NCBI RefSeq assembly: GCF_005938655.1
Contig: NZ_VCQT01000024.1
Coordinates: 1-41,480 of the forward strand
DNA: 41,480 nt
Direction of reading: 5' to 3'
DNA from: Alloalcanivorax gelatiniphagus
GTDB lineage: Bacteria > Pseudomonadota > Gammaproteobacteria > Pseudomonadales > Alcanivoracaceae
In this document: positions 32,121 to 39,685 of the stretch, piece by piece
How the letters are laid out: each line of letters starts with the position of its first letter
Numbering within the stretch: the first letter of the stretch is position 1
The notes under the pieces: generated by a model
The model's input: only the letters and a program-made list of their open reading frames with translations
Told to the model about the DNA's origin: nothing
Database searches by the model: none
Translations under genes and position numbers: made by a program

Positions 32121-32179
32121 CGCGGCTGAAGCCGCTCCTACATCCAAGGTAGCCATGTAGGAGCGGCTTTCAGCCAGCG
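32121..32179. repeat. Paired REP-like hairpin, copy 6, overlapping the MerR gene end
   Basis: The left arm CGCGGCTGAAGCCGCTCCTA plus CAT (32121-32143) is inverted at 32155-32179, where an extra T interrupts the core (GGCTTTCAGCC) and the end is degenerate. A partial extra half (GGGTCGCGGCTGG) lies just upstream at 32106-32118. The right arm overlaps the last codons of the MerR gene, whose TGA stop (32172-32170) is the TGA of the element's core. Confidence 0.85.
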
Positions 32180-32577
32180 TTAAACGAATCAATCAACCCG
32201 CACACGCGGCCATCCTCCAGCCGGCAATCCGGGGCGTCTTCCCAGGCCGCCATGGCGGCGCGCATGCGGTCGCTGAGGCCGCGCAATTCCCGGATGCGCG
32301 CTTCCACCTCATCCAGCCGCGTCTCGATCAGGGCCCGCACCCGTGGGCACGGCGTGGCGCCGCTTTCCGATTCCTCGATCAACTCGCGCACATCCCCCAG
32401 GGTGAAGCCCAGCCCCCGGGCCTTCAACGCGAAACGCAGCCGGCGCAGGTCGTCGCCGCCGTAGCGGCGGTAGCCATTGGCCGCGTCCCGCTGGGGGCGC
32501 AGCAGGCCCAGTTCGGTGTAATGGCGAACGGTTTCGGCGGTGGTGTCGGCCCGCCGGGCCAGATCGGTGACGCGCAT
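32170..32577 (-). CDS. MerR-family metal-type regulator
   Basis: A 135-residue MerR protein. The winged helix MRVTDLARRADTTAETVRHY with TELGLLRPQRDAANGYRRYG is canonical, followed by a dimerisation helix (about 80-112). Cysteines at 77, 118 and 126 match the positions of the metal-binding triad of MerR, ZntR and CadR proteins. Cys77 (serine in CueR-type sensors) favours a divalent metal such as Zn, Cd, Pb or Hg. No efflux pump or metal gene is adjacent, so the target is elsewhere or lost. GGGAGG precedes ATG 32577. The stop lies inside a REP element, so the last residues may not be original. Confidence 0.87.
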   Translation of the reverse strand: MRVTDLARRADTTAETVRHYTELGLLRPQRDAANGYRRYGGDDLRRLRFALKARGLGFTLGDVRELIEESESGATPCPRVRALIETRLDEVEARIRELRGLSDRMRAAMAAWEDAPDCRLEDGRVCGLIDSFNAG

Positions 32578-32641
32578 GGGGCCTCCCGGTGATGGTGAAA
32601 CCGTAAGTGGTAGCAACGGGCGGTTATTGTAGCACCGGTAC

Positions 32642-34243
32642 TCAGACCCGGCCGGGGTAGCCGGTGATCTGACGAATGGCCCGGTACAGGGGTCCCAGGC
32701 GCGGATACAGGCGGCGGTAAACCCGCCGGTAGAGTTGGTCGTAGAGGGCGGTCTCCGCCGGGCGCGGATCGAAACGGCGGCCGGGCCGGGTCATGGCCGC
32801 CACGGCGGCGGCATGGTCGTCGAACAGCCCGGCGCCCACCGCCGCGTTGATGGCGGCGCCCAGCCCGGAGGTCTCGAAGGTGTGCGGGCGCACCGCCGGC
32901 AGCCCGAACAGGTCGGCGGTGATCTGCATCACCGCGTCGCTCTGGGAGCCACCGCCGGACACCAGCAGCCGCCGCACCGGGGTGCGGTTGCGCTTTTCCA
33001 GGCGCTCGCGGCCTTCGCGCAGGGCATAGGCGATGCCCTCGATAATGGCCCGGTACAGATGGGCGCGGGTGTGCACGTCGCCGAAGCCGATGATGGCGCC
33101 CTTGGCCTCCGGCCCGGGAACCCGCACCCCCGGGTTCCAGAACGGCTGCAGGGTCAGCCCCAGGGCCCCCGGCGGTGACGCCTCCAGAAGCTGTTCGAAC
33201 AGCTGCTCCGCCGGCACCCCCAACTGCTCCGCCTGGCGCACTTCCTCGGCGGCGAACTGCTGCTTGAACCAGTTCACCATCCAGTAGCCGCGCTGCACGA
33301 TGATCTCCGAGTTATAGCGGCCCGGGGCGGCGGCGCCGTAGGCCGGCACGAACGGGATCGGCTCCACATAGGCGGCGTTGCAGGTGTTGAAGGTGGCGGT
33401 GGTGCCGTAGCTGAGGTGGCCGGTGTCCGGCTCGAAGGCGCCGGAGCCAAGCACTTCACAGGCTTTGTCGGCGCCGCAGGCGATCAGCGGCAGCCCGGCG
33501 GGGATGCCGGTGTCGGCGGCGGCGGCCTCGGTGATGGCCCCCAGGGGCCGGCCCGGCGGCACCAGCTCCGGCAGCTGCTCACGGCGCACCCGCAGGGCGT
33601 GCCATTTCATGTCGCCGGGGGACGCCCAGCACTGCTTCTTGTAGTCAAACGGCAGATAGCCCACCTGGCTGGCGGTGCAATCCCGGCGCTGGCCGCACAG
33701 CCGCCAGGTCAGGTAGCCGGACAGCAGCAGGTAGGAATCGGTGCGCGCCCACAGGTCCGGTTCCTGGGCGGCCAGCCAGTTGCATTCCGCCTTGGCCTGG
33801 AACTGGCGCAGGGTCTCGCCCTGCCCCAGGGCCGCCACCGGCCAGCGCCAGTACGCCGGCAGCCGGGGATAGTCGTCGGTGCGGCGCTGGTCCAGCCAGA
33901 TCACCACCGGGCGCAGCGGCGTCATCGCCTGATCCAGGCACACCACCGAGGCGCGCTGGGTGGTCAGAGCCACCGCCACCACCCGCTGGCGCAGCTCGCC
34001 GTGCGTCTCCCACAGGCCCTGGCAGGCCAGGCTCAGCTGCCGCCAGAAGTAGTCCGCGTGCTGTTCCGCGTGGCCGGGGCCACCGTCCCGGTAGGGCTGG
34101 ATCGGCTGCTGGTAGCGGCCCACCAGTTCACCGCTGGCGTCGAACAGCATGGCCCGGCTGCTTTGCGTGCCCTGGTCCAGCGCCAGCAGCAGCGGCGCGC
34201 CGGAGCCCGGCCGGTTGGCGCTGCCGCTCACATTGCCGCTCAC
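32642..34243 (-). CDS. FGGY-family carbohydrate kinase, glycerol-kinase-like
   Basis: A 533-residue FGGY kinase with two ribonuclease-H-like ATPase halves. Phosphate-binding LALDQGTQSSRAMLFD is near residue 20, and the catalytic base is Asp259 in ACGADKACEVLG. The adenosine-binding LVSGGGSQSDAVMQITADLF is in the second half. Compared with GlpK, the Arg/Glu pair NQRE that binds glycerol is TQRA here (R97, A98): the glutamate is lost, while Trp116 in VIWLDQRRT is kept. This argues for a substrate other than free glycerol. I chose GTG 34243, which overlaps the GlpD-like stop as GTGA, the last gene of a three-gene operon. The C-terminus is longer than GlpK with a basic YRRVYRRLYPRLGP stretch. Confidence 0.85.
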   Translation of the reverse strand: MSGNVSGSANRPGSGAPLLLALDQGTQSSRAMLFDASGELVGRYQQPIQPYRDGGPGHAEQHADYFWRQLSLACQGLWETHGELRQRVVAVALTTQRASVVCLDQAMTPLRPVVIWLDQRRTDDYPRLPAYWRWPVAALGQGETLRQFQAKAECNWLAAQEPDLWARTDSYLLLSGYLTWRLCGQRRDCTASQVGYLPFDYKKQCWASPGDMKWHALRVRREQLPELVPPGRPLGAITEAAAADTGIPAGLPLIACGADKACEVLGSGAFEPDTGHLSYGTTATFNTCNAAYVEPIPFVPAYGAAAPGRYNSEIIVQRGYWMVNWFKQQFAAEEVRQAEQLGVPAEQLFEQLLEASPPGALGLTLQPFWNPGVRVPGPEAKGAIIGFGDVHTRAHLYRAIIEGIAYALREGRERLEKRNRTPVRRLLVSGGGSQSDAVMQITADLFGLPAVRPHTFETSGLGAAINAAVGAGLFDDHAAAVAAMTRPGRRFDPRPAETALYDQLYRRVYRRLYPRLGPLYRAIRQITGYPGRV

Positions 34244-35775
34244 GCCGCCGCCCGCTCCGCCGGCGGCACCCCGTAGAAGCGCTCGCGCAGTTCCTGGTAG
34301 CGGCTCCATTCCTGTTCCCAGCGGGCCTGGTCCCAGCCCAGGATCTCACCGGTGAGCGCTTGCAGGCGCGGTGCCAGGGCGGCGCCGCCGTCCCGGCGCA
34401 GCAGGCCCAGGCGGGTGCGCCGCAGCAGCAGGTCGTCCAGGTGCACCACCGCCTCGTTTTCCAGCATCCAGCGAATCAGGGCGTCGTCGTCCTGGTTGCC
34501 GTGCAGGAACTGGTCCACCTGCAGCGGCGCCTCCGGCAACGGCCGGAACATGGGCGCGTTGCTGCGCCGGGCCCGGCGTGCCGCGCGGGCGTCCAGCAGG
34601 CCGGCGGCGGCCAGGGCGTCCAGGGCGATCAGGCGGAAAGTAGTGAGCTTGCCGCCACTCACCGTGACCACGCCGTTGCCCTGCCACACCGCATGGTCGC
34701 GGCGCTCCTTGGAGGGCGCCCGGTCGCCGGGCTTGCCGGCGGCCGCTTTGCGGGCGGCGTCGGAGGCGATCACCGGGCGCACCCCGGCCATGGTGGAGAG
34801 CACATCCTGGCGGCCCAGGGCGGCGCCGGGAAACTGGCTGTTGATCAGCTCCAGCAGGTAGTCCACTTCGCCGGCGCTGGCGCTGGCTTCCAGGTCCAGA
34901 TCGTCGCCGTGGTCCAGGTCGGTGGTGCCCACGCAGGTGACCCCCTCCCAGGGGAACACGAACACCGGCCGGCCATCCCGGGGGTGCATTACCGTCAGGC
35001 AGTCGTCCACCGGCAGCCGCGCCGGGTCCACGAACAGATGGCTGCCACGCAGCGGCCGGATACGCGGCGGCGTGCCCGGCTCCGGCGCCCCCAGCCGGTC
35101 GGCCCAGGCGCCGGTGGCGTTGATCACCACCGGCGCGCTGAGGGTGGCGCGCTCGCCGCTGACCCGGTCTTCCACGGTCAGCTGGGTGCGGTCGCCCTCC
35201 CGGCGGGCGTCCAGGGCCTGGGTGTAATTAAGGCTCTCGCCGCCCAGGCGGGCGGCTTCCAGCAGGCAGCGGATCACCAGGCGGCAGTCGTCGGTGAGCG
35301 CGTCGGTGTAGCTCATGGCGCCGCTCAGGCCGGTGGCGTCCAGGCCCGGCACCCGCGCCAGCAGTTCCCGGCGGGGCACGAAACGGTGGTCACGGATGCC
35401 GGCCAGGAAGTCGTACAGGGACAGCACCGCGGTCATCGGCCAGCGGCCGGGAAATTTGCCCTTGCGCAGGGGAAACAGGTAGGTGGCCCGTTCCACCAGG
35501 CCGGGCAGATCGCGCAGCAGCCGCTCGCGCTCGCGCAGGGCGTCGCGGGTCAGGCGCACATCGCCCTGGGCGATATAGCGAAGACCGCCGTGGACCATCT
35601 TCGAGGAGCGGCTGGAGGTGCCCCAGGCGAAGTCCCGCTGCTCCAGCAGCAGCACCTTGTGGCCCTGGCGCGCCGCCTCCAGCAGCACCCCGGCGCCGGT
35701 GATACCACCGCCCACCACGATCAGATCCCATTGCCGTTCCGCCAGTGTGGCCAGCGCCGGACGTGCTCCCAGCAT
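34240..35775 (-). CDS. GlpD-like FAD glycerol-3-phosphate dehydrogenase/oxidase
   Basis: A 511-residue DAO-type flavoprotein. The FAD dinucleotide-binding motif is IVVGGGITGAGVLLEAARQG (residues 19-38). Then come WGTSSRSSKMVHGGLRY, which matches the GlpD SSKLIHGGLRYL element, STMAGVRPV with the phosphate-binding Arg, and VSGGKLTTFRL near the end of the FAD domain, all landmarks of GlpD. It would oxidise sn-glycerol-3-phosphate, or a substituted form, to the ketone at the membrane and feed electrons to quinone. The start at ATG 35775 lies 3 bp after the AGPS-like stop with GGAGGA upstream. The C-terminal cap (about 385-511) is less conserved. Classic glpD is usually beside glpK, glpF or glpR, none of which is here, so it may be a paralogue. 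Confidence 0.88.
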   Translation of the reverse strand: MLGARPALATLAERQWDLIVVGGGITGAGVLLEAARQGHKVLLLEQRDFAWGTSSRSSKMVHGGLRYIAQGDVRLTRDALRERERLLRDLPGLVERATYLFPLRKGKFPGRWPMTAVLSLYDFLAGIRDHRFVPRRELLARVPGLDATGLSGAMSYTDALTDDCRLVIRCLLEAARLGGESLNYTQALDARREGDRTQLTVEDRVSGERATLSAPVVINATGAWADRLGAPEPGTPPRIRPLRGSHLFVDPARLPVDDCLTVMHPRDGRPVFVFPWEGVTCVGTTDLDHGDDLDLEASASAGEVDYLLELINSQFPGAALGRQDVLSTMAGVRPVIASDAARKAAAGKPGDRAPSKERRDHAVWQGNGVVTVSGGKLTTFRLIALDALAAAGLLDARAARRARRSNAPMFRPLPEAPLQVDQFLHGNQDDDALIRWMLENEAVVHLDDLLLRRTRLGLLRRDGGAALAPRLQALTGEILGWDQARWEQEWSRYQELRERFYGVPPAERAAA

Positions 35776-35778
35776 GTG

Positions 35779-37374
35779 TCAGTCCTCCAGCAGGCAGCCC
35801 GGATTGAGCCGCCCTTGCGGGTCAAAATGTGTGATCAGGCCGCGTATCGCCGCCAGACCCTGCTCGCCTTTTTCGTGCCCCAGCCAGGGGGCGTGGTCGC
35901 GGCCCACCCCGTGCTGGTGGCTGATGGTGCCGCCGTGTTCCACGATGGCGTCGCTGGCGGCGCTCTTCATCGCCCACCAGCGCCGCCGGGTGCTCTGGTA
36001 ATCCTCCGAACACCGGAACACATAGGTGGTATAGATACTGGAACCTTGCGCATACAAATGCGACAGATGCGTGAATACGTGGGCCCGCTCGCCCTCCCCG
36101 GCGTGCTCCCGCAGGGCCTTTTCGATGGCCGCCACGGTGTCCGGCACCCGCGCCCAGTCCACGCAGGTTTCCAGGGTATCCACCGCGTAGCCCTGTTCCC
36201 AGAGGCCGTGGCGCAGATACGGCGAGCGGAAGCGGGCCTCCTCCCATTTGCGGCCCAGCACCCGGCCGGTGGTGACGCCGCCGGCGGCGCGCAGATAACG
36301 GCGCGCTTCGCCGAGGGCGTGGCGGCAATGGCGCCGGTCACCGGTGACCCCGAAGGTGACCATGCATTTTCCGTCCAGGGGCTGGCCGCGCCAGGACAGA
36401 TACCGATGCAGAGCGCTCACCAGCCGCTCGTGGCCGGCCAGGGTCAGTTGGGTGCGGGTCTCCTCCGGGTTGGAGACGCGCACCATGGACAGCGGCACCC
36501 GCTCCTGCACCAGCCGCCGGGCCAGGGCCACGGCGCTGGCCCAGTCCGGCATGAAGGCCACATGGAACTGTTCGTCCCGGGGGGCGGCGCTGACCCGCAC
36601 CTTGACCTCGGTGATCACCCCCAGGCGCCCCTCCGAGCCCATCACCATTTCGCGCAGGTCCGGCCCGGCGGAGGACGCCGGAATGGTGGGCAGCTCCAGG
36701 GTTCCCCGTGGCGTCTCCACCCGGCCGCCGGCGAACAGCTGCTCGATGCGGCCGTAGGCCAGGGACTGCTGGCCACTGGAACGGCTGGCCACCCAGCCGC
36801 CCAGGGTGGACAGCTCCCAGGACTGGGGATAGTGGCCGAGCCGGTAGCCCCGCTCCTTCAGTTGCCGCTCCACCTCCGGGCCCGGCGTGCCGGCGCCGAA
36901 GGTGGCCAGGCGGCTGTCTTCGTCCAACGCCAGCAGGCGGTTCATCCTGGCCAGGCTCAGGGTCAGCACCGGCCGCTCGCCGGCGGGCGGATTGATATGG
37001 CCGGCCACCGAGGTGCCGCCACCGTAGGCGATCAGGCGCACGTCCTGTTGCTGGCACCAGTCCAGCAGCTCGCGGACCTGGTCGCCGTGCTCGGGAAAGG
37101 CGACGCCGTCGGGAAACACCTGGACCTGGCCGGAGCGCAACGCCAGCCAGTCCGCCAGGCTCTGACCCCGGGCATGGCGCACGCGGGTCTCCGCGTCGGT
37201 ATCGATCAGCGGGTGCGGCGGCAGCCGGCTGGCCGGCACCCGGGCCAGCACCGATTCCAGGCTGGCGTCCGGCAGCGGCCGTCCCGGCCCCAGGGTCTGG
37301 CGCAGAAAGGCCGCCCCGGCCGGTTTCAGCGGATAGTCGTTGGCGCTGTCGCCCCAGCCGTTCCAGCGTCTCAT
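35779..37374 (-). CDS. FAD-binding oxidase similar to alkylglycerone-phosphate synthase (AGPS)
   Basis: A 531-residue VAO/PCMH-type flavoprotein. It starts MRRWNGWGDSANDYPLKPAG, like the MKWNGWGYNDSKF of animal AGPS. The FAD-binding domain has AYGGGTSVAGHINPP (116-130), GHYPQSWELSTLGGWVASR (180-198) and MGSEGRLGVITEVKVRVS (245-262), and the C-terminal motif GGTISHQHGVGRDHAPWL (481-498) matches the animal AGPS SHHHGVG segment with one histidine replaced by Gln. In eukaryotes AGPS swaps the acyl chain of acyl-dihydroxyacetone phosphate for a fatty alcohol, making the ether bond of plasmalogens. A D-lactate-dehydrogenase-type oxidase is the alternative. First gene of the operon; GAGGAGAG lies before ATG 37374. 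Confidence 0.85.
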   Translation of the reverse strand: MRRWNGWGDSANDYPLKPAGAAFLRQTLGPGRPLPDASLESVLARVPASRLPPHPLIDTDAETRVRHARGQSLADWLALRSGQVQVFPDGVAFPEHGDQVRELLDWCQQQDVRLIAYGGGTSVAGHINPPAGERPVLTLSLARMNRLLALDEDSRLATFGAGTPGPEVERQLKERGYRLGHYPQSWELSTLGGWVASRSSGQQSLAYGRIEQLFAGGRVETPRGTLELPTIPASSAGPDLREMVMGSEGRLGVITEVKVRVSAAPRDEQFHVAFMPDWASAVALARRLVQERVPLSMVRVSNPEETRTQLTLAGHERLVSALHRYLSWRGQPLDGKCMVTFGVTGDRRHCRHALGEARRYLRAAGGVTTGRVLGRKWEEARFRSPYLRHGLWEQGYAVDTLETCVDWARVPDTVAAIEKALREHAGEGERAHVFTHLSHLYAQGSSIYTTYVFRCSEDYQSTRRRWWAMKSAASDAIVEHGGTISHQHGVGRDHAPWLGHEKGEQGLAAIRGLITHFDPQGRLNPGCLLED

Positions 37375-37618: not shown

Positions 37619-38284
37619 ATGAAACGTCTTGCGGGAAGCTTGATGCTGGCGGGGGCGGTAACGCTGGCCGGCTGTAGCACCATCAATCCTTACACTGGTG
37701 AAAAGCAGACCTCGAAGGCCGGCGCCGGCGCCGCCATCGGCGCGGTGAGCGGTGCCCTGATCGGTATCGCCACCTCGGACAGCGCCAAGCAGCGCAAAGA
37801 GCGCGCCCTGGCCGGCGCGGGCATCGGCGCCATCGCCGGCGGCGGCGTGGGCTACTACATGGACGTACAGGAAGCCAAGCTGCGCCAGAAGCTGGAAGGC
37901 ACCGGCGTTTCGGTAACCCGGAACGGCGACCGCATCATCCTGAACATGCCCGGCAACATCACCTTCGCCACCGACTCCACTGACGTGCAGAGCAACTTCC
38001 GCCCGGTGCTGGATTCCGTGGCCGAAGTGCTGAAGGAATACAAATCCACCATGGTCCAGGTGGCCGGTCACACCGACAGCACCGGTGGCGAGCGCTACAA
38101 CCTGCTGCTCTCCCAGCAACGGGCCCAGGCCGTGTCCCAGGTCCTTCAGGGCTTCGGCGTGCAGGCCGTGCGCATCGATACGGTGGGCTTCGGCGAAACC
38201 CAGCCGGTGGCCGACAACGGCACCGCCAATGGCCGCCAGCAAAACCGTCGTGTGGAACTGACGTTGATTCCGTACGAGGGCTGA
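37619..38284 (+). CDS. yiaD: OmpA-family lipoprotein YiaD
   Basis: A 221-residue outer-membrane lipoprotein. The signal peptide ends in the lipobox LAGC (Cys19). Residues 30-85 form a glycine-zipper segment (AGAGAAIGAVSGALIGIATS and ALAGAGIGAIAGGGVGYYMD). The OmpA C-terminal peptidoglycan-binding domain follows (about 110-221), with ITFATDSTDVQSNFRPVLDS, VAGHTDSTGGERYNLLLSQQ and NGRQQNRRVELT. GVGYYMDVQEAKLRQKLEGT and the following GVSVTRNGDRIILNMPGN are close to E. coli YiaD, hence the name. It tethers the outer membrane to peptidoglycan. GAGGAG lies just before ATG 37619. Confidence 0.93.
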   Translation: MKRLAGSLMLAGAVTLAGCSTINPYTGEKQTSKAGAGAAIGAVSGALIGIATSDSAKQRKERALAGAGIGAIAGGGVGYYMDVQEAKLRQKLEGTGVSVTRNGDRIILNMPGNITFATDSTDVQSNFRPVLDSVAEVLKEYKSTMVQVAGHTDSTGGERYNLLLSQQRAQAVSQVLQGFGVQAVRIDTVGFGETQPVADNGTANGRQQNRRVELTLIPYEG

Positions 38285-38404: not shown

Positions 38405-39652
38405 TCAACTCCCCTCTACTTCCTTCTTCTTGACCCGCAACCGCCAAACCAACACCGCCAACGGAACCATCAACACCACCACCAACATATACGGAAACCG
38501 GTGGTCCACGGCGTAGAGGCTGGTGCCCACCAACGGCCCGAGCACGAACCCCAGAGACGGACAGGCGCTGGCCAGGCCGGCCACCCTGCCCTGTTCTTCA
38601 TTGGATACCCGCAGGCTGGCCAGGGCCATGATCGCCGGCATGCCGAAGCCGATGCCCAGGCCCACCAGCATCACCGCCGCGGTCATGCCGACCCGGTTGT
38701 CGAACATCCACAGCAGCGCCGCGCCCAGGCCGATGGCGGGTACCGCCACCGCCAGCAGCGCCAGGGCCGGGGCGCGCAGCCATTGCACCACCAGCAACTG
38801 CCCGAGCAGGGAGGTCACCGCCGCCGCCATCATGGTGGTGCCCAGGGCGCCGGCGGCTTCCGCCGGGGTCATGTGCAGCGCATCCTGGAACAGAAAGCCC
38901 AGGGTCTGCTGGATCAGCGCCAGGCACATGAACAGCACCACGCCGGTGATCAGCAGGTCCCGGAAGCGGCGGTCGCCGTAGGCGCGCAGCCCGGTGGCCA
39001 GCACCGCCCGGACCCGCTGGTCCGCCGGTTGGCCCCGGTACGGCGACGGCGGCAGAAACAGCAGCACGGTGAGCGCCATCAGCCCCACCAGCGCCGCCAC
39101 CAGGTACAGCGGCAGCACCAGGGACACGGCGGCCAGCAGGCCGCCCACGCCGGGGCCCAGCACCGTGCCCAGGTTGTTGGCGGCACCGATGCGCGCCATG
39201 CCCCGGGTACGGGCCTCCGGGGTGGTGATGTCGGCGGTGTAGGCCGCCGCCGCCGGCGGCGTGGCGGCCATGATCAGGGCCTGGGCCATGCGCGCCACCA
39301 CCAGCAGCGTGAGCAGGCCGCCGCCGAGCAGAACCTGATTCAGGCCCAGGTGGAAGATCACGCCGAACACCAGGGTGCCCAGGGCGTAGCCGCTCAGACC
39401 GATAATCAGCACCGGCCGGCGGCCGCGCAGCTCGCTCAGGTAACCCCAGATCGGACTGGCCAGGGCGAACGCCAGGGACGAACAGCTGATGATCAGCCCC
39501 ACCTGCACCTCCGCCAGCCCGGCGGCGCGGCCCAGGGACGGCAGCAGAATGAACACCAGGGTCTGGCCCAGGGCGGTGACCCCCACCGCGCCCAGCAGCA
39601 GGGCCTGGGTGAGGCCCGGGGCGAGCGTGGGAACGATGGGGAAACGGGGCAC
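38405..39652 (-). CDS. MFS transporter
   Basis: A 415-residue, 12-helix major facilitator. Motif A is GYLSELRGRRPVLIIG. TPPAAAAYTADITTPEARTR and GAANNLGTVLGPGVGG fit the drug:proton antiporter DHA1/TetA-like group. The C-terminal half includes SNEEQGRVAGLASACPSLGF, a loop 10-11 motif. The substrate is unknown. I chose GTG 39652 because AGGAG lies six bases upstream; the TTG seven codons earlier has no ribosome site. A short imperfect inverted repeat lies upstream of it and another overlaps its 3' end. Confidence 0.88.
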   Translation of the reverse strand: MPRFPIVPTLAPGLTQALLLGAVGVTALGQTLVFILLPSLGRAAGLAEVQVGLIISCSSLAFALASPIWGYLSELRGRRPVLIIGLSGYALGTLVFGVIFHLGLNQVLLGGGLLTLLVVARMAQALIMAATPPAAAAYTADITTPEARTRGMARIGAANNLGTVLGPGVGGLLAAVSLVLPLYLVAALVGLMALTVLLFLPPSPYRGQPADQRVRAVLATGLRAYGDRRFRDLLITGVVLFMCLALIQQTLGFLFQDALHMTPAEAAGALGTTMMAAAVTSLLGQLLVVQWLRAPALALLAVAVPAIGLGAALLWMFDNRVGMTAAVMLVGLGIGFGMPAIMALASLRVSNEEQGRVAGLASACPSLGFVLGPLVGTSLYAVDHRFPYMLVVVLMVPLAVLVWRLRVKKKEVEGS

Positions 39653-39685
39653 TTGGGACTCCTGGTATGGCAAGGAACGATTCAG

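What the first reader, a model, noticed from the sequence alone, without database searches (positions are those of the whole stretch)
32642..37374. Three-gene operon of AGPS-like, GlpD-like and FGGY kinase proteins: possible glycerol-ether pathway
The genes are packed with a 3-bp gap and a 4-bp GTGA overlap, so the products are made together. The first looks like alkylglycerone-phosphate synthase (including the N-terminal WNGWG segment and a C-terminal SHQHGVG), the second like GlpD, the third like a glycerol-type kinase. In order they could phosphorylate an alkylglycerol, oxidise it to alkyl-DHAP, and exchange the alkyl chain, or run in reverse to make ether lipid. Known: AGPS makes ether lipids in eukaryotes, and AGPS-like genes occur in some bacteria. 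Inference: that these three act on one pathway. A pathway for glycerol ethers is plausible in a lipid-rich marine bacterium.
Basis: partly seen in the sequence, partly recalled or inferred. Interest (0 to 1): 0.7.

Follow-up and report, generated by a model that had tools for sequence, protein, structure and literature searches.

The report
Likely bacterial ether-lipid breakdown operon
Three neighbouring genes form a conserved bacterial operon, already described in Pseudomonas without a known function, whose enzymes may phosphorylate, oxidise and then split glycerol ether lipids, a reaction that reviews credit to a single unrelated enzyme.

Summary
In detail: a flavoprotein, a GlpD-like dehydrogenase and an FGGY kinase lie on the minus strand with a 3-bp gap and a 4-bp GTGA overlap. 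The trio is real: 19 of 20 genomes with a close flavoprotein relative in two even-drawn samples have all three, as do the 80 best public matches. The flavoprotein lies on the AGPS side of its family, not with D-lactate/glycolate-type oxidases (100/100 split). It keeps AGPS's key Arg, Arg and Tyr, but most of its clade has HQH where AGPS has HHH. The GlpD-like protein keeps the G3P-type active site in its own clade. The kinase is not a canonical glycerol kinase. Two AGPS-like operons that look biosynthetic carry an acyltransferase and a reductase; this one carries a kinase and an oxidising dehydrogenase, so breakdown (alkylglycerol, alkyl-G3P, alkyl-DHAP, then DHAP plus fatty alcohol) is the better fit, though 2 of 80 loci have an acyltransferase just upstream. 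The operon is not new: it has the layout of PA3026-PA3024 of Pseudomonas aeruginosa (2021), for which the biosynthetic direction was suggested and no deletion phenotype found. The breakdown reading was not found in the papers searched and is untested by experiment.

The parts
35779..37374 (-). AGPS-like flavoprotein (first gene of the operon; 531 aa)
34240..35775 (-). GlpD-like FAD dehydrogenase (second gene; 511 aa)
   Evidence: Pfam DAO; NCBIfam GlpD 259.6 bits against a cut-off of 360 (a strict cut-off, control); six G3P-site residues kept in 91 of 91; separate clade from canonical GlpD in a small tree
32642..34243 (-). FGGY-family kinase, not a canonical glycerol kinase (third gene; 533 aa from GTG; ATG at 34309 possible)
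   Evidence: Pfam FGGY_N and FGGY_C; below the cut-off of all 12 NCBIfam models it matches; E84 and Q246 of glycerol kinase replaced
35776..35778 (-). 3-bp gap between first and second gene
   Evidence: ORF coordinates
34240..34243 (-). GTGA overlap of the second gene's stop and the third gene's start
32170..32616 (-). MerR-family regulator 25 bp downstream of the kinase on the same strand; possible fourth gene in this lineage only
   Evidence: Pfam MerR_1 and MerR-DNA-bind; next to the trio in L033 and L036, about 1 kb away in L034 and L035, no match in the other 76 of 80 loci

Best explanation
The operon most likely breaks down 1-O-alkylglycerols (from ether lipids in the surroundings or of other organisms). 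Step 1: the FGGY kinase phosphorylates the alkylglycerol to 1-O-alkyl-glycerol-3-phosphate. Step 2: the GlpD-like flavoprotein oxidises carbon 2 to the ketone, giving alkyl-DHAP and passing electrons to the respiratory chain. Step 3: the AGPS-like flavoprotein runs AGPS chemistry backwards: a carbanion at C1 adds to N5 of FAD, the fatty alcohol leaves, and water or a fatty acid attacks the flavin-bound intermediate, freeing DHAP or acyl-DHAP. DHAP goes to central metabolism and the alcohol to beta-oxidation. Shown here by sequence: the operon, its conservation, AGPS-type and G3P-type active sites, a changed kinase pocket. Inferred: the substrate, the direction, the order of steps and the release of alcohol.
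For: (1) Trio in 89 of 90 loci measured, 89 of 89 on one strand, and in 19 of 20 even-sampled genomes. (2) The flavoprotein is on the AGPS side with 100/100 support; residues equal to R419, R515, Y578 of guinea-pig AGPS (R352, R447, Y508 of Dictyostelium, important for catalysis per PMC3509576) are kept in 91 of 91. All 18 lactate/glycolate-type rows used have Glu and His at 419 and 578. (3) The GlpD-like protein keeps R54, Y55, H233, R317, R332, K354 (E. coli numbers, recalled list) in 91 of 91 and is sister to the actinobacterial partner GlpD, apart from canonical GlpD, in a 29-row tree. Canonical GlpD over the family cut-off coexists in 11 of 19 trio genomes (one of the 11, in G489, has a stop inside). 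(4) The kinase loses E84 in 90 of 90 and Q246 in 89 of 90, while a true glycerol kinase (728 bits, cut-off 590) is elsewhere in this genome. (5) Two AGPS-like sets look biosynthetic, with an acyltransferase and a reductase-type protein (L150, L145); the trio has a kinase and an oxidising FAD enzyme instead, and genome G112 has both sets. (6) In actinobacteria GlpD, TetR and AGPS-like genes sit with a lipid kinase in 2 of 3 examined; Rv2249c-Rv2252 has the same content (PMC4564863, table passage). In Pseudomonas-type loci a lipid kinase lies downstream in 23 of 80, and the GliR regulon adds a phospholipase C (PMC8151288). (7) Weak: no recurrent multi-membrane-span gene lies within 600 bp of the trio in the 80 loci (crude hydropathy test), which would suit a membrane-soluble substrate.
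Against: No substrate or product is known. The middle His of AGPS's HHH is Gln in 88 of 91, and the model is least sure exactly there (pLDDT under 50 at 487-490). A separate clade of 8 AGPS-like rows keeps R419 and Y578 in 8 of 8 and R515 in 7 of 8, though annotated neighbours there are CoA-transferases and TRAP transporters (L166, L167) or a sterol-desaturase-family gene (L165), so these residues do not prove AGPS chemistry. Acyltransferase genes do occur near some trios: 135-139 bp upstream on the same strand in L034 and L035 (2 of 80), and 3.5 kb away in G112, which suits synthesis. Deleting PA3026-PA3024 gave no growth phenotype on rich medium, citrate, glycerol or nine Biolog plates (PMC8151288), though ether lipids are not mentioned there. 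In 5 of 19 trio genomes the trio GlpD is the only one found, this genome included. The GlpD cut-off is strict: only 1 of 14 control genomes passes it while 10 match, so missing it says little. The reverse AGPS reaction on an ether is not documented in what I read. G038 lacks the kinase. The published lipid-linked neighbours (lipid kinase, AraC regulator) are not beside the window's trio.
Confidence: 0.42

Rival explanations
1. Ether-lipid synthesis: the kinase and GlpD-like protein supply G3P and DHAP, another enzyme acylates DHAP, and the AGPS-like flavoprotein swaps the acyl chain for a fatty alcohol. This is the direction suggested in print for PA3026-PA3024.
For: AGPS-type active site; the published in silico proposal (PMC8151288, section 2.5); an acyltransferase gene 135-139 bp upstream of the flavoprotein on the same strand in L034 and L035, and one 3.5 kb away in G112.
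Against: In the other 78 of 80 loci no such acyltransferase cluster was caught by the ORF clustering beside the flavoprotein (clustering misses genes). No alkyl-DHAP reductase was seen in the trio, unlike L145 and L150. GlpD-type enzymes work in the oxidative direction (established knowledge), the opposite of the reduction that synthesis needs next. The kinase pocket is not that of a glycerol kinase. G112 has a separate biosynthetic-looking set besides the trio.
Confidence: 0.23
2. A polyol or sugar-type pathway: the kinase and the GlpD-like enzyme work like EryA/EryB of erythritol use (recalled), and the flavoprotein is an ordinary dehydrogenase of a related acid or alcohol.
For: In Roseibium a distant AGPS-like gene lies in an operon with an FGGY kinase and a Ugp-type ABC transporter (L168). 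An AGPS-like clade in non-lipid contexts keeps the key residues. The kinase scores highest on the xylulokinase model (235.7 bits, below the 380 cut-off), but a true glycerol kinase also scores 211.6 on it, so this is weak. A GntP permease is 4.1-5.4 kb from the trio in 8 of 80 loci.
Against: No recurrent multi-span gene within 600 bp of the trio (crude test). The deletion mutant showed no phenotype on nine Biolog plates (PMC8151288). Lipid kinases and a phospholipase are linked to the same set (PMC8151288). Roseibium's flavoprotein falls outside the clade of trio, actinobacterial and true AGPS rows (99/99, with a long-branch warning).
Confidence: 0.2
3. Breakdown of monoacylglycerols or lysolipids rather than ethers: the same three steps, with acyl-DHAP as the substrate of the flavoprotein and fatty acid as the leaving group.
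For: The first half-reaction of AGPS is release of fatty acid from acyl-DHAP (PMC3509576 passages). Same lipid-linked context (PMC8151288).
Against: Ordinary lipases already remove acyl chains, so a three-enzyme route would be needed only for a bond they cannot cut (inference).
Confidence: 0.12

Closest known systems
PA3027-PA3023 gene cluster of Pseudomonas aeruginosa (GliR regulon; PMC8151288)
   Same: Same three genes in the same order, described as FAD-binding oxidoreductase, GlpD homologue and FGGY carbohydrate kinase; the published 4711-bp deletion is close to the window trio's 4733 bp; many Pseudomonas loci here have the divergent AraC gene and a downstream lipid kinase.
   Different: The window lacks the adjacent AraC gene and lipid kinase; it has a MerR gene downstream and an OmpA-type lipoprotein divergent. 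The published proposal is the biosynthetic direction. The PAO1 sequences themselves were not compared here.
Alkylglycerone-phosphate synthase (AGPS/ADPS; 2uuu, 4bby)
   Same: Whole-length fold including the N-terminal WNGWG segment; key Arg, Arg, Tyr plus H300 and T309 kept.
   Different: HQH instead of HHH and Thr for S527; own clade (100/100); operon partners are a kinase and an FAD dehydrogenase.
Aerobic glycerol-3-phosphate dehydrogenase GlpD
   Same: Six active-site residues (recalled list) kept in 91 of 91.
   Different: 232-304 bits against a strict cut-off of 360; separate clade in a small tree; coexists with canonical GlpD in 11 of 19 genomes.
Actinobacterial set GlpD-TetR / AGPS-like flavoprotein-YegS lipid kinase (Streptomyces, Tsukamurella; Rv2249c-Rv2252)
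   Same: AGPS-like and GlpD-like proteins plus, in 2 of 3 examined, a kinase; its GlpD is sister to the trio GlpD in the small tree.
   Different: The kinase is of the diacylglycerol-kinase family rather than FGGY, the layout is divergent, the flavoprotein has HHH, and the relation of its flavoprotein to the trio's is unresolved in the tree.
Alkylglycerol monooxygenase (AGMO)
   Same: Would share the net result: ether-bond cleavage of alkylglycerols.
   Different: AGMO is an oxygen- and tetrahydrobiopterin-dependent membrane enzyme, described as the only enzyme known to do this (PMC7911779 passages, PMC3617469 abstract).

Membership tests
AGPS (alkylglycerone-phosphate synthase) | FAD_binding_4 plus FAD-oxidase_C architecture | tested here: met
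AGPS (alkylglycerone-phosphate synthase) | Groups with AGPS rather than D-lactate/glycolate-type oxidases | tested here: met
AGPS (alkylglycerone-phosphate synthase) | Catalytic R352, R447, Y508 (Dictyostelium) = R419, R515, Y578 (guinea pig) | tested here: met
   91 of 91; importance from PMC3509576 passages; but nearly all also kept in an AGPS-like clade of other context
AGPS (alkylglycerone-phosphate synthase) | HHH motif (H615-H617) | tested here: not met
   HQH in the window; 88 Gln and 3 His of 91 at the middle position (the 3 are L049, L050, L149). So it is called AGPS-like, not AGPS
AGPS (alkylglycerone-phosphate synthase) | Exchange of acyl for alkyl on DHAP | not testable with these tools
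   needs an assay
Ether-lipid biosynthesis operon | Acyltransferase and alkyl-DHAP reductase next to AGPS | tested here: not met
   None among the window's neighbours; both types beside AGPS-like genes in L145 and L150. In related loci L034 and L035 an acyltransferase, but no reductase seen, is just upstream
GlpD | NCBIfam GlpD equivalog cut-off | tested here: not met
   259.6 bits, cut-off 360; strict, only 1 of 14 control genomes passes
GlpD | G3P active-site residues (R54, Y55, H233, R317, R332, K354; list recalled) | tested here: met
   91 of 91
Glycerol kinase GlpK | NCBIfam GlpK cut-off | tested here: not met
   136.1 bits, cut-off 590; the genome's other kinase passes with 728
Glycerol kinase GlpK | Glycerol-site R83, E84, W103, Y135, D245, Q246, F270 (list recalled) | tested here: not met
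   R83, W103, D245 kept in 90 of 90; E84 lost in 90 of 90; Q246 lost in 89 of 90; Y135 mostly Phe but the alignment is unsure there; F270 could not be aligned
Xylulokinase XylB | NCBIfam XylB cut-off | tested here: not met
   235.7 bits, cut-off 380
GliR cluster (PA3027-PA3023) | Flavoprotein-GlpD-FGGY kinase in this order | tested here: met
   by layout and annotation only
GliR cluster (PA3027-PA3023) | Divergent AraC regulator and downstream lipid kinase | tested here: not met
   The window's neighbours are an OmpA-type lipoprotein and a MerR gene; this genome's two YegS-type kinases are on another contig
GliR cluster (PA3027-PA3023) | Sequence orthology to the PAO1 proteins | not tested
   PAO1 sequences were not fetched

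The most novel reading that the evidence does not exclude
Bacteria cleave glycerol ether bonds without oxygen, by running AGPS-type flavin chemistry in reverse on alkyl-DHAP made by a dedicated kinase and a dedicated GlpD-like dehydrogenase; a parallel version in actinobacteria uses a diacylglycerol-kinase-type lipid kinase instead.
Probability: 0.33. Interest if true: 0.82.

Novelty: new variant of a known kind. Interest (0 to 1): 0.57.

Why it matters
Ether lipids are common in marine animals and animal tissues, and the reviews seen name a single enzyme (AGMO) that cuts their ether bond. A second, oxygen-independent route would explain how bacteria recycle them. It would also give a function to an operon whose flavoprotein is present in 55 of 148 sampled genomes of one bacterial family (Pseudomonas by inference) and in 23 of 38 relatives of this genome, itself included, and it would offer a reading for the actinobacterial GlpD/flavoprotein/lipid-kinase set. 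One growth test and one enzyme assay would decide it.

Tried and rejected
D-lactate, glycolate or 2-hydroxyglutarate dehydrogenase for the flavoprotein: rejected by sequence scores, tree, active-site residues and fold. Plain glycerol catabolism (GlpK + GlpD): rejected for the kinase by pocket residues and cut-off, and made unlikely for the dehydrogenase by the canonical GlpD in 11 of 19 trio genomes. But in 5 of 19, this genome included, the trio GlpD is the only one found, so a part in ordinary G3P oxidation is not excluded.

Literature: 10 searches, open-licence papers only. The GliR paper appeared only in the last. No listed paper that I opened proposes the breakdown direction; subscription papers and preprints were not searched. 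Seen: PMC8151288 (abstract, section 2.5 whole, passages); PMC4564863 (one table passage); PMC7911779 and PMC3509576 (passages); PMC3617469 (abstract and outline); PMC9192799 (abstract start in a listing).
Full report
What is there. On the minus strand of the window three genes follow each other: a flavoprotein (37374-35779), a GlpD-like dehydrogenase (35775-34240) and an FGGY kinase (GTG at 34243 to 32642), with a 3-bp gap and a 4-bp GTGA overlap. Pfam confirms the three families. The nearest relative of the flavoprotein in the genome scan is in Alloalcanivorax mobilis (78% identical, which may leave out the genome's own near records).

Conservation. Of the 80 best public genome loci, 80 hold the three genes in the same order and strand. 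This set is biased to close kin. Two even-drawn samples correct for that: 185 genomes of the class and 398 of the phylum. Together they hold 20 distinct genomes with a close flavoprotein relative (7 in the class sample at 388 bits or more, 15 in the phylum sample at 747 bits or more, two shared). GlpD is adjacent in 20 of 20. The kinase follows in 19 of 20; in G037 it is 1.3 kb away behind another ORF, and G038 lacks it. In all, 89 of 90 loci measured have the trio, 89 of 89 on one strand. The flavoprotein alone is in 55 of 148 sampled genomes of the family of G235 (two of the 55 are partial). I take this to be the Pseudomonas family because contigs of G432 and G321 (same family) have the same lengths as contigs of named Pseudomonas. 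It is in 23 of 38 relatives of this genome, itself included. The 2021 paper found the cluster in a 'very limited number' of 1748 genomes.

The GlpD-like protein. It scores 259.6 bits against the GlpD cut-off of 360; the cut-off is strict, since 10 of 14 control genomes match the model and only 1 passes it. Six active-site residues (recalled list) are kept in 91 of 91. In a tree of 29 rows the trio proteins, with one stand-alone copy from G007, form a group (96/97) whose sister is the actinobacterial GlpD that sits beside an AGPS-like gene (99/91); the five canonical GlpD rows are outside. Canonical GlpD over the cut-off coexists in 11 of 19 trio genomes, one of them with a stop inside; in 5 of 19 the trio GlpD is the only match. 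This genome is one of the five.

The kinase. It is below the cut-off of all 12 NCBIfam models it matches. Against the genome's own true glycerol kinase (728 bits, cut-off 590), R83, W103 and D245 are kept in 90 of 90, E84 is replaced in 90 of 90 (mostly Gly or Ala) and Q246 in 89 of 90; Y135 is mostly Phe, where the alignment is unsure, and F270 could not be aligned. A smaller residue where glycerol's hydroxyl would be held fits a glycerol bearing a chain, but does not prove it. Fold comparison does not separate substrates.

Context and direction. Two other AGPS-like loci look biosynthetic: L150 has an HMG-CoA reductase, an acyltransferase and a short-chain reductase around it, L145 a GPAT-like acyltransferase and an epimerase/reductase-type protein. 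G112 carries the L145 set and the trio. The window's trio has neither partner beside it and has instead a kinase and an FAD dehydrogenase of a type that oxidises. Against this, an acyltransferase gene lies 135-139 bp upstream of the flavoprotein in L034 and L035 (2 of 80) and one lies 3.5 kb from the trio in G112. In actinobacteria the flavoprotein and GlpD come with a TetR gene, and with a YegS/Rv2252-type or diacylglycerol-kinase-family gene in 2 of 3 examined. Rv2249c, Rv2250c, Rv2251 and Rv2252 (GlpD1, regulator, flavoprotein, diacylglycerol kinase) are listed consecutively in one table of PMC4564863. In the 80 loci a lipid kinase lies downstream on the same strand in 23, within 63 bp in three, and an AraC gene upstream in 51, divergent in 50 (Pfam of one representative each). 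No recurrent multi-span gene lies within 600 bp of the trio by a crude hydropathy test; a GntP permease is 4.1-5.4 kb away in 8 of 80.

What is known. The layout is that of PA3027-PA3023 of P. aeruginosa (PMC8151288). There, excess GliR (PA3027) raised PA3026-PA3024 mRNA 135- to 173-fold, the lipid kinase PA3023 47-fold and the phospholipase C PA3464 130-fold. The authors suggested a path from glycerol to alkylglycerone phosphate and found no growth phenotype for the operon deletion on rich medium, citrate, glycerol or nine Biolog plates. No word beginning with 'ether' occurs in the text. They report no glpD or glpK homologues in the identified strains outside Pseudomonas; this genome has no second GlpD but has GlpK.

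Verdict. The best reading is breakdown: phosphorylate, oxidise, then split the ether by AGPS-like chemistry in reverse. Reviews call AGMO the only enzyme known to cut this bond (PMC7911779 passages, PMC3617469 abstract). Nothing here shows the substrate, and synthesis or a polyol route remain possible.

Noticed in passing
window 32170-32616: A MerR-family regulator lies 25 bp behind the kinase on the same strand; it is next to the trio in L033 and L036 and about 1 kb away in L034 and L035, with no match in the other 76 of 80 loci.
   Followed up: partly
window 37619-38284 and 38405-39673: A YiaD-type OmpA lipoprotein is divergent to the operon, 244 bp away, followed by an MFS transporter gene; both are near the trio in four of 80 loci.
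   Followed up: no
L087 12015-13304 and ten like it: In 11 of 80 loci, all Pseudomonas, a gene for a 429-aa protein with a signal-peptide-like start follows the kinase on the same strand by 139-240 bp; no Pfam match, though by eye it recalls zinc-dependent phospholipase C.
   Followed up: partly
L034 6002-6862 and L035 6048-6866: An acyltransferase gene (Pfam Acyltransferase and DAGAT for L034) sits 135-139 bp upstream of the flavoprotein on the same strand.
   Followed up: partly
own genome (G000): No GlpD-type dehydrogenase other than the window's was found, though a true glycerol kinase is on contig C50.
   Followed up: partly
L193 5845-7377 (G007 contig C45): A stand-alone second trio-type GlpD in a genome that also has the full trio; an acyltransferase and an epimerase-type gene lie about 2.4 kb away on the other strand.
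   Followed up: partly
L156-L160, L165-L167: A well-supported clade of AGPS-like flavoproteins keeping HHH; where annotated, beside a CaiB/BaiF CoA-transferase, LysR-type gene and TRAP transporter (L166, L167) or a sterol-desaturase-family gene and an SDR gene (L165); function unknown.
   Followed up: partly
L168 6944-9893: In Roseibium aggregatum a distant AGPS-like flavoprotein is followed by an FGGY kinase annotated xylulokinase (363.5 bits, cut-off 380) and a Ugp-type ABC transporter.
   Followed up: partly
L145 and L144 (G112): One genome carries both a biosynthetic-looking AGPS/acyltransferase/reductase set and the trio, a good organism for separating the two functions.
   Followed up: partly
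L049 and L050: Two metagenome bins labelled Actinomycetota carry the gammaproteobacterial-type trio with HHH instead of HQH; whether the label is right was not checked.
   Followed up: no
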